Assembly (NCBI GenBank): GCA_949285905.1
Contig: CASDZV010000015.1
Coordinates: 1 to 64,000 of the forward strand
DNA from: an uncultured Spirochaetales bacterium
Lineage (GTDB): Bacteria; Spirochaetota; Spirochaetia; Sphaerochaetales; Sphaerochaetaceae
Direction of reading: 5' to 3'
DNA: 64,000 nt
Shown here: in pieces, positions 15,468 through 24,743 of the stretch
Layout: each line of letters starts with the position of its first letter
Position numbering within the stretch: position 1 is the stretch's first letter
Made by a program: the position numbers and the translations under genes
Notes under the pieces: generated by a model
Databases searched by the model: none
Seen by the model: the letters and a program-made list of their open reading frames with translations, nothing else
What the model was told of the DNA's origin: nothing

Positions 15468-15505
15468 GCCGGCTTGTCTTCTGACCAGCCGGCTTATTTT
15501 TTTTA
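15468..15505 (+). terminator. Intrinsic terminator after secG
   Basis: GCCGGCT (15468-15474) and AGCCGGC (15487-15493) form a perfect 7-bp stem with a 12-nt loop, followed by TTATTTTTTTT. It is the clearest intrinsic terminator in the window. Confidence 0.88.
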
Positions 15506-15549
15506 TAACGTGAAAACTTCATGCCTCTATAGGCTGGAAATGAATCGTA

Positions 15550-15558
15550 TGCTATAAT
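15550..15558 (+). promoter_or_regulatory. Extended -10 promoter upstream of structured leader
   Basis: TGCTATAAT (TGn plus perfect TATAAT). No good -35 hexamer is seen, as is usual for extended -10 promoters. The predicted start is near 15565, just before the first leader hairpin. Confidence 0.6.
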
Positions 15559-15564
15559 CTTGAT

Positions 15565-15696
15565 AATTCTTGCGGGGAAAACCCTGCACACATGTTGAAC
15601 GCATGTGCACTCCGGTGAAGCCTTTGCAGTACAGCTTCGCTCCTGCCTCTGCAGGTGCCGAACCGGAAGCCCTGAGGGCAGTTCATGGAGTTGAAA
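15565..15696 (+). promoter_or_regulatory. Highly structured 5' leader RNA, class not recognised (candidate cis-regulatory RNA)
   Basis: About 130 nt between the extended -10 promoter and the flavodoxin-like start. Helices that can be drawn by eye: 15572-15577 with 15582-15587 (AAAA loop); 15589-15594 with 15602-15607; 15611-15616 with 15662-15667, closing a junction that holds 15617-15621 with 15634-15638 and 15642-15646 with 15651-15655; and 15669-15672 with 15676-15679. A competing pairing, 15643-15648 with 15676-15681, would break the last two and could switch access to the ribosome site GGAG at 15687-15690. I could not match it to FMN, cobalamin, TPP, SAM, glycine, c-di-GMP, SRP, 6S or RNase P signatures. 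Confidence 0.55.
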
Positions 15697-16116
15697 ATGC
15701 AAGTTTGTATCGTATATGCGGCTAAAAGCCGAGAATCCGGTGATAAGCTGAAGGCAATATGCCAGTCACTTGCAAAAGGATTGGAAATGCAAGGCCATCA
15801 GGCTGATGTCGTAAATGCTCATGATGATACCAGACTCACTCTCTATGACTATGTGGTCATCGGCTCTGAGTCTGTTTCCTTTTTCTCAGCCTCTGTTCCG
15901 GAGATCCTGACAAAGTTCCTCGCCGAGGCAGGAACTGTTTCCGGAAAGCGCTGCATGGCATTCATCACACCATGCCTGAGAAAAGGGAAGACACTGCAGA
16001 ATCTCATGAAGACAATGGAAAGGGAGGGCATGATGCTCAAGATTTCCGAAGTGATAAAGAAGCCGGAAGAGGCGCTGGCTATTGGTAAACGCCTTAATGT
16101 TGAGAGGAACAACTGA
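15697..16116 (+). CDS. Flavodoxin-like fold protein
   Basis: The 139-residue product begins MQVCIVYAAKSRESGDKLKAI, matching the first strand and phosphate-binding loop of flavodoxin-like proteins, and DYVVIGSESVSFF and KRCMAFITPC fit later strands. The canonical T/SxTGNT loop is degenerate (AAKSRESGD), so FMN binding is uncertain. The ATG at 15697 is preferred over one at 15685 because GGAG (15687-15690) lies 6 nt upstream. It is preceded by a structured leader and overlaps the SurA-like gene by one base. Role could be electron transfer or a flavoprotein-derived regulatory function; not determined. Confidence 0.6.
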   Translation: MQVCIVYAAKSRESGDKLKAICQSLAKGLEMQGHQADVVNAHDDTRLTLYDYVVIGSESVSFFSASVPEILTKFLAEAGTVSGKRCMAFITPCLRKGKTLQNLMKTMEREGMMLKISEVIKKPEEALAIGKRLNVERNN

Positions 16117-24365: not shown

Positions 24366-24732
24366 GGGGGTGTTCTGGTTTCGACTGGCTTTGCCATGCC
24401 GTAGACTGCGGATCAAGAGCTGACTTGTAAAACCGGCAAAAAAAAATTAAATGCAAAGAAAGAAGACGAATACGTCTCTGACGAAGCACTCGCTCTTGCT
24501 GCTTAATCAGCACTGAGCATGGACTGGATGGATTAAGTCCCTGATTCATCCTCTCCATTACGACAGGGGACTTGCCTTTCTCTGTTTTGCCGCGGAGGAA
24601 GGGACGCTAAGGCAATGCCTCACCTGAACGCCTGTTCCGCTGCCGAATGGTGAGTAAGACAGAAGAGGAACTATATCCGTAGACGTTTATGGGTGGACTG
24701 TTAGGACGGGAGTTCGAGTCTCCCCACCTCCA
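24366..24732 (+). ncRNA. ssrA: tmRNA (transfer-messenger RNA), ssrA
   Basis: Rescues stalled ribosomes and tags incomplete proteins for proteolysis with SmpB. The 5' end GGGGGTG (24366-24372) pairs with CACCTCC at the 3' end to form the acceptor stem, followed by a discriminator A at 24732; CCA is not encoded. The tRNA-like T arm (GGGAG TTCGAGT CTCCC) is visible, as is the typical 5' block TTCTGGTTTCGACTGG. The tag frame starts at GCA (24453) and encodes AKKEDEYVSDEALALAA, stopping at TAA 24504-24506. The tag is 17 residues, longer than the usual 8-12. smpB lies 570 nt downstream on the other strand. Confidence 0.97.
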
Positions 24733-24743
24733 TTGAGGAATTT

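What the first reader, a model, noticed from the sequence alone, without database searches (positions are those of the whole stretch)
15550..15696. Structured 130-nt leader RNA ahead of a flavodoxin-like gene, no known class recognised
An extended -10 promoter is followed by an RNA that folds by eye into six helices, including a closed multi-branch junction (15611-15616 with 15662-15667 enclosing two hairpins). A competing pairing, 15643-15648 with 15676-15681, would dismantle the last two hairpins next to the ribosome site at 15687-15690, a typical switch design. It does not fit FMN, cobalamin, TPP, SAM, glycine, c-di-GMP, SRP, 6S or RNase P signatures as I know them. It could be an undescribed riboswitch or a small ncRNA.
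Basis: partly seen in the sequence, partly recalled or inferred. Interest (0 to 1): 0.75.

Follow-up and report, generated by a model that had tools for sequence, protein, structure and literature searches.

The report
Mobile stand-alone TnpB guide-RNA element
The structured RNA in front of the flavodoxin-like gene is not a gene switch but a small jumping element that carries, with its own promoter, the guide RNA of a TnpB nuclease (an ancestor-type relative of Cas12) without the nuclease gene, which suggests that such guide RNAs can live and spread on their own.

Summary
The RNA is real, but the context is misread. Window 15507-15686 is a 180-nt IS200/IS605-type insertion. Relatives with the same secG/flavodoxin neighbourhood lack it, and it sits directly 3' of TTTAT with no target duplication. 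Copies lie at unrelated sites in six other genomes of the genus. A covariance model built from stand-alone copies hits, in 33 of 48 genus genomes, mostly RNAs that overlap the 3' end of tnpB and end at the element's right end. That is the layout of a TnpB omegaRNA/reRNA. Four helices and a P2-loop/3'-end pseudoknot (GRAC with GUUC, matching the ISDra2 omegaRNA pseudoknot) are conserved with compensatory changes. Stand-alones share the left end and extended -10 type of the tnpB elements, so they look like core-deletion derivatives in which a tnpB-type promoter abuts the omegaRNA. The same genome has an intact 450-aa TnpB with this RNA. The riboswitch idea fails: the leader is not conserved ahead of flavodoxin genes, and the competing pairing is chance. 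It is a new variant of a known kind: PATE-like elements that are promoter-driven, solo TnpB guide RNAs. Action in trans is inferred, not shown.

The parts
15502..15506 (+). TTTAT target / putative transposon-associated motif (TAM), in the T-tract of the secG terminator
   Evidence: TTTAT(C) or TTTAC(C) precedes the left end of most copies, stand-alone and tnpB-linked; gapped alignment of the rejoined flanks to unoccupied relatives
15507..15686 (+). whole inserted element (180 nt), core-deleted IS200/IS605-type derivative
   Evidence: absent from orthologous secG/flavodoxin intervals in relatives; homologous copies at other sites in 6 genomes
15518..15539 (+). left-end (LE) subterminal hairpin TTCATGCC-TCTATA-GGCTGGAA
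   Evidence: same position and loop in other copies (CTCCAT..CTCTATAG..ATGGAG), shared with left ends of tnpB elements
15550..15558 (+). extended -10 promoter TGCTATAAT
   Evidence: TG(N)TATAAT or a one-base variant at the same place in most diverged stand-alones and just upstream of tnpB in complete elements
15566..15686 (+). omegaRNA/reRNA scaffold
   Evidence: cmsearch R1 match, 89.4 bits; R1 was built with this copy among its 8 sequences
15571..15588 (+). helix P1 (15571-15577 with 15582-15588)
   Evidence: conserved, 99% of cells paired, 3 doubly changed pairs
15589..15607 (+). helix P2 (15589-15595 with 15601-15607)
   Evidence: 5 doubly changed pairs
15597..15600 (+). P2-loop GAAC, pseudoknot strand pairing with GUUC 15681-15684
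   Evidence: 96.8% of cells paired; doubly compensated in L157, L130, L131
15611..15667 (+). helix P3 (15611-15616 with 15662-15667) closing a variable interior with two window-specific hairpins
   Evidence: outer helix conserved; interior diverged in this copy
15669..15679 (+). helix P4, right-end (RE) hairpin (15669-15672 with 15676-15679)
   Evidence: 5 doubly changed pairs
15681..15686 (+). right-end terminus GTTCAT (GUUCAY), second pseudoknot strand, end of scaffold
   Evidence: junction to variable flank in the copies; end of 99.9%-identical tnpB elements L148/L153
15687..15702 (+). presumed guide (about 16 nt of flanking DNA), coincides with the ribosome site and start of the flavodoxin-like gene
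   Evidence: inferred from the ISDra2 reRNA layout (PMC8612924); no other perfect copy in the genome
15697..16116 (+). flavodoxin-like gene downstream (host gene, not part of the element)
   Evidence: orthologues in 48 of 60 relatives, weak PF12724

Best explanation
The RNA is the omegaRNA (reRNA) scaffold of a family-specific TnpB system. It is carried by a non-autonomous IS200/IS605-type element that lost the tnpB core but kept the left-end hairpin, an extended -10 promoter of the kind found upstream of tnpB, the omegaRNA and the right end. Shown here: insertion 3' of TTTAT, multi-copy spread, shared ends with tnpB elements, conserved helices and pseudoknot, and a tnpB of the same family in the same genome. 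Inferred: transcription from 15550-15558 reads through the scaffold into the right flank, so the first ~16 nt of flank (15687-15702) become the guide; a TnpB made elsewhere in the cell binds the RNA; TnpB then recognises TTTAT plus that flank, i.e. the unoccupied site, which favours retention of the element, while a Y1 TnpA moves it in trans. As a side effect, the insertion gives the flavodoxin-like gene a new promoter and 5' leader. Rough probabilities: omegaRNA identity 0.93; family functional in trans 0.5; this diverged window copy still functional 0.3.
For: Empty site in relatives. Copies at unrelated sites in 6 further genomes, several nearly identical within G067, G013 and G028. CM R1, built only from stand-alones, finds RNAs overlapping the 3' end of tnpB in most of the 33 hit genomes. 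Shared left ends; two 99.9%-identical tnpB elements bounded by TTTAT(C) and GTTCAC. Covariation 0/500 shuffles; pseudoknot GRAC/GUUC with three doubly compensated sequences, matching the ISDra2 omegaRNA -6G...-2A pseudoknot (PMC10097598). NCBIfam guided_TnpB above cut-off for L139. Intact 450-aa TnpB in the window genome. Y1 TnpA genes in the genome. Stems in nine stand-alones keep 248 pairs, against 225 (maximum 238 of 2000) when the same number of changes is placed at random.
Against: No expression or cleavage data. The window copy is diverged inside P3 and taken alone does not beat the random-change model (P 0.18). One of seven genomes with stand-alones (G004) shows no related TnpB at the limit used, and G028 and G025 show only fragments; MAG gaps may explain this. 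The cognate TnpBs carry Gln where the canonical RuvC-II Glu is expected (QDEN/QDDN), so nuclease activity is uncertain. Single origin of the stand-alones is not rejected (AU p = 0.21) but not proven, so part of the stem conservation could be inherited from tnpB-linked ancestors.
Confidence: 0.8

Rival explanations
1. Inert deletion derivative (PATE/MITE): the element is mobilised by TnpA through its end hairpins; the omegaRNA is a passenger relic with no present function.
For: PATEs that arise by core deletion of IS605-type elements are known (PMC3119063). Recent near-identical copies need no RNA function. Window copy diverged within P3; G067 copies have degraded -10 sequences (TAAGGAATACTT) and L150 a degraded right end; G004 lacks a visible related TnpB.
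Against: P1, P2, P3 and the pseudoknot are not known to be needed for single-strand transposition, yet stay paired in diverged stand-alones (248 against 225 expected). The extended -10 is kept at a similar spacing in most diverged copies.
Confidence: 0.4
2. Cis-acting leader or riboswitch of the flavodoxin-like gene.
For: Position between an extended -10 and the ribosome site; stable fold.
Against: Not present ahead of orthologous genes; homologues beside unrelated genes and tnpB; competing pairing at chance level and not conserved.
Confidence: 0.03
3. Domesticated element: a TnpB with a weakened active site uses stand-alone omegaRNAs as guides for DNA binding and repression (TldR-like) rather than cleavage.
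For: Glu to Gln at the RuvC-II position in all intact cognate TnpBs where the motif was read; stand-alone RNAs at the same distance upstream of one CBS-domain gene in two species (L071 in G004, L073 in G025).
Against: RuvC-I and RuvC-III Asp are kept and a Glu or Asp lies two residues on (QDEN/QDDN). The tnpB elements are multi-copy and mobile, unlike the single-copy tnpB-derived repressors described (from memory). No second TTTAT-flanked guide match in the window genome.
Confidence: 0.1

Closest known systems
TnpB omegaRNA / reRNA of IS200/IS605 elements (ISDra2; PMC8612924, PMC10097598)
   Same: Scaffold overlaps the 3' end of tnpB and the right end in the linked copies; ends GUUCA(N) at the flank; 3'-end pseudoknot; insertion 3' of a TTTAT-like motif without duplication
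   Different: In stand-alones there is no tnpB; a promoter sits directly upstream of the scaffold; sequence matches no Rfam family
PATEs (palindrome-associated elements from core-deleted IS605-type transposons; PMC3119063)
   Same: Two subterminal hairpins, no ORF, multi-copy, derived from IS605-type elements by core deletion
   Different: This family keeps a promoter and the complete guide-RNA scaffold, with signs of selection on its structure
Stand-alone IscB omegaRNA loci (Altae-Tran 2021; from memory, not found in the library searched)
   Same: Many omegaRNA copies without a nuclease gene beside them, thought to work in trans
   Different: IscB omegaRNA carries its guide at the 5' end; here the 3'-guide TnpB type with an internal promoter
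TldR, RNA-guided repressors derived from TnpB (PMC13418256 and earlier; title/abstract and memory only)
   Same: TnpB relative with altered RuvC and a guide RNA
   Different: Here the nuclease genes are still mobile and multi-copy; repression not shown

Membership tests
TnpB omegaRNA/reRNA | Gene overlaps the 3' end of tnpB and the transposon right end | tested here: met
   Met for the linked members of the same CM family, including L139, L138 and L140 in the same genome; the window copy itself has no tnpB
TnpB omegaRNA/reRNA | 3'-end pseudoknot between the terminal GUUCA and an upstream loop | tested here: met
   GRAC/GUUC, 96.8% of cells paired, three doubly compensated sequences; window 15597-15600/15681-15684
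TnpB omegaRNA/reRNA | Guide of about 16 nt taken from flanking DNA 3' of the right end | tested here: inconclusive
   Scaffold ends exactly at the junction with variable flank; no RNA data
TnpB omegaRNA/reRNA | RNA binds TnpB and directs cleavage next to the TAM | not testable with these tools
   Needs biochemistry
IS200/IS605-type element (PATE) | Insertion 3' of a short motif without target duplication | tested here: met
   TTTAT kept at the left, none at the right; rejoined flanks align to empty sites in relatives, with small indels in the AT-rich spacer
IS200/IS605-type element (PATE) | Subterminal hairpins at both ends | tested here: met
   LE hairpin 15518-15539 and RE hairpin 15669-15679, both seen in other copies
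IS200/IS605-type element (PATE) | Mobilised by a Y1 TnpA | tested here: inconclusive
   Y1_Tnp genes present in the genome; pairing of a TnpA with these ends not tested
Cis-acting riboswitch of the flavodoxin-like gene | Conserved upstream of orthologous genes | tested here: not met
   Absent in relatives
Any Rfam family | Score at or above the family's gathering threshold | tested here: not met
TldR-type repressor system | Inactivated RuvC nuclease with a guide aimed at a host promoter | tested here: inconclusive
   RuvC-II Glu replaced by Gln, both Asp kept; no trans target found

The most novel reading that the evidence does not exclude
Promoter-driven solo TnpB omegaRNAs form a self-perpetuating class of mobile guide RNAs. 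Each copy takes its guide from the site where it lands, and they share a TnpB and a TnpA in trans, so that one nuclease gene polices many miniature elements. With the Gln-substituted RuvC this may be by binding rather than cutting.
Probability: 0.35. Interest if true: 0.75.

Novelty: new variant of a known kind. Interest (0 to 1): 0.55.

Why it matters
TnpB guide RNAs are described as made in cis from the 3' end of tnpB. A lineage in which a promoter abuts the scaffold and the coding core is gone would be a TnpB counterpart of stand-alone IscB omegaRNAs. It would also resemble the step proposed for the birth of separate tracrRNA/crRNA genes (splitting of an omegaRNA ancestor; discussed in PMC10097598), and it would give a natural test of whether omegaRNAs work in trans. 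Such elements also reshape the promoters and leaders of host genes, which makes them easy to mistake for riboswitches.

Tried and rejected
Riboswitch/leader: rejected by comparative position and chance-level switch pairing. Known Rfam families, including permissive scans of the window and of the tnpB-linked L139: none. First guess that the partner was one of the TnpBs ending GGTACTGTCAC, CGTTGAC or GTAGGTCAC: not this family. A strict DNA pattern for the right end was too narrow. Shared secG neighbour for the G013 copy: wrong, it lies between rplI and dnaB. Guide matches in trans in the genome: one 1-mismatch site without TTTAT, no support. Viral contigs (one exact pattern) and plasmids (window element): none. 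Class-wide CM search of 198 genomes: only two genera of the same family. Literature searches found no report of promoter-bearing solo TnpB omegaRNAs, but the library is open-licence only.

Full report
Observation. 15550-15696 folds at -51.8 kcal/mol, z -2.2, 4 of 200 shuffles as good, and no Rfam family matches even with permissive thresholds. The gene downstream is a short flavodoxin-like protein (weak PF12724) in the order gap-pgk-tpi-secG-[element]-flavodoxin-PpiC/SurA-like, then nusB-like and map-like frames.

It is an insertion. The flavodoxin gene has relatives in 48 of 60 genomes. Where secG precedes it, the gap holds only the secG terminator and a ribosome site, even in the closest relative (86% identical protein). 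Removing 15507-15686 and aligning the joined flanks to relatives gives ...GCCGGCTTATTTTTTTTAT|GGAGTTGAAAATGCAAG against, for example...GCCGGCTTATTCTTTCTAAATAG|GGAGTACTTATGCAGG. The alignment crosses the junction with only small indels in the AT-rich spacer. The element begins after TTTAT, ends with GTTCAT, and leaves no target duplication.

It is multi-copy. BLASTN in 48 genomes of the genus found copies of the promoter and first hairpins in six further genomes, several per genome, at unrelated sites. Pattern matches in named records show that three of these genomes are MAGs of uncultured Spirochaetaceae/Spirochaetales. Eight stand-alone copies gave a consensus structure with four helices and 7 doubly changed pairs.

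It belongs with TnpB. A covariance model from those eight copies hit 33 of 48 genomes at E<=1. Most hits outside the stand-alones begin inside the C-terminal codons of a ~440-aa PF07282 protein (...CGYTEDRDVKAAKTL|LLAGKHE...) and end at GTTCAC followed by variable flank. L139 is recognised as guided_TnpB above the NCBIfam cut-off (108.6 against 100 bits), L148 just below it (99.2); both pass Pfam OrfB_IS605 and Cas12f1-like_TNB cut-offs. L139 also aligns to ISDra2 TnpB structures. Two tnpB elements of G067 are 99.9% identical from the left end to GTTCAC and differ outside, which fixes the element ends. Left ends are shared: TTTAT(C)...GAGAAGACTCCAT-loop-ATGGAGATGAATCG in tnpB elements and stand-alones alike. 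In tnpB elements a TATG(N)TACAAT/TATAAT box lies just before the tnpB start; in stand-alones the same kind of box lies about a dozen bases before P1. The simplest reading is deletion of the tnpB core that brought the promoter next to the omegaRNA. A tree of the RNA places most stand-alones together with the L139/L114 subtype of tnpB-linked RNAs; one clade is not rejected (AU p = 0.21).

Structure. On 55 distinct sequences the four helices are 94.5% paired, 15 of 26 pairs show changes on both sides, and no measure was reached by any of 500 shuffles; slid versions fall to 26-44% paired. The alignment was fitted to the model, but the pseudoknot was not part of the model. The P2 loop (GAAC/GGAC) can pair with GUUC of the terminal GUUCAY; 96.8% of cells pair, and three sequences change both sides together (L157 GAAG/CUUC, L130 GAAU/AUUC, L131 GGAC/GUCC). 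Most of the columns involved are near-invariant, so the shuffle test for the pseudoknot alone is modest (1-22 of 500 shuffles reach the covariation measures). In ISDra2 TnpB the terminal -6G..-2A forms the omegaRNA pseudoknot with an upstream strand at -106..-102 (PMC10097598); position and letters agree.

Is the solo RNA still selected? Nine representative stand-alones keep 248 of their pairs, where random placement of the same number of changes keeps 225 on average and 238 at most in 2000 trials; the effect is strongest in L067 (14 stem changes, all 30 pairs kept). The window copy shows 12% changes in stems against 56% elsewhere (partly alignment), but alone is not significant (P 0.18). If some stand-alones had separate tnpB-linked ancestors, part of this signal is older than the loss of tnpB.

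Mechanism. By the established ISDra2 scheme (PMC8612924) the RNA would read through the right end, take about 16 nt of flank as guide (15687-15702 here, GGAGUUGAAAAUGCAA), and lead TnpB to TTTAT plus that flank, the empty site. A 450-aa TnpB of this family without internal stops is in the same genome (G000:C58), besides two copies with internal stops, and Y1 TnpA genes are present. The guide has no second TTTAT-flanked match in the genome. All steps after transcription are inference. A caution is the TnpB itself: all intact members where the motif was read have Gln where canonical TnpB has the RuvC-II Glu, with Glu/Asp two residues later, while the RuvC-I and RuvC-III Asp are kept; activity must be measured.

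The switch. The pairing 15643-15648/15676-15681 exists but appears in 25% of shuffled interiors and in none of the 14 relatives checked. The insertion may still have changed expression of the flavodoxin-like gene, since it supplies an extended -10 and a new leader right up to the ribosome site.

Place among known things. Core-deleted IS605-type elements (PATEs) are known (PMC3119063), as are TnpB omegaRNAs; stand-alone IscB omegaRNAs are known to me from memory only. The open-licence library held no report of promoter-bearing solo TnpB omegaRNAs, which is weak evidence of novelty. The family is narrow: in a 198-genome class sample only two genera of one family had it.

Noticed in passing
L139 1298-2647 and other intact cognate TnpBs: Canonical RuvC-II glutamate replaced by glutamine (QDEN/QDDN) in every intact member where the motif was read, while both RuvC aspartates are kept; activity of this TnpB group is an open question.
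   Followed up: partly
L134 1501-1662 (G066:C227): An apparently separate omegaRNA derivative: half of the left-end hairpin fused directly to the scaffold, without the promoter box; right end GTTAAC damaged.
   Followed up: no
L071 (G004) and L073 (G025): Stand-alone RNAs lie 24-25 nt upstream of the same CBS-domain gene in two species although the genes further upstream differ.
   Followed up: partly
L063 2091-2340 (G013:C13): Stand-alone copy with an internal partial duplication of the P1/P2 region.
   Followed up: no
L074-L103: Other TnpB groups in the genus have different omegaRNA ends (GGTACTGTCAC, GGTCGTTGAC, GTAGGTCAC), so several TnpB systems coexist in one genus.
   Followed up: no
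window 24366-24735 +: tmRNA gene (Rfam RF00023, 157 bits).
   Followed up: no
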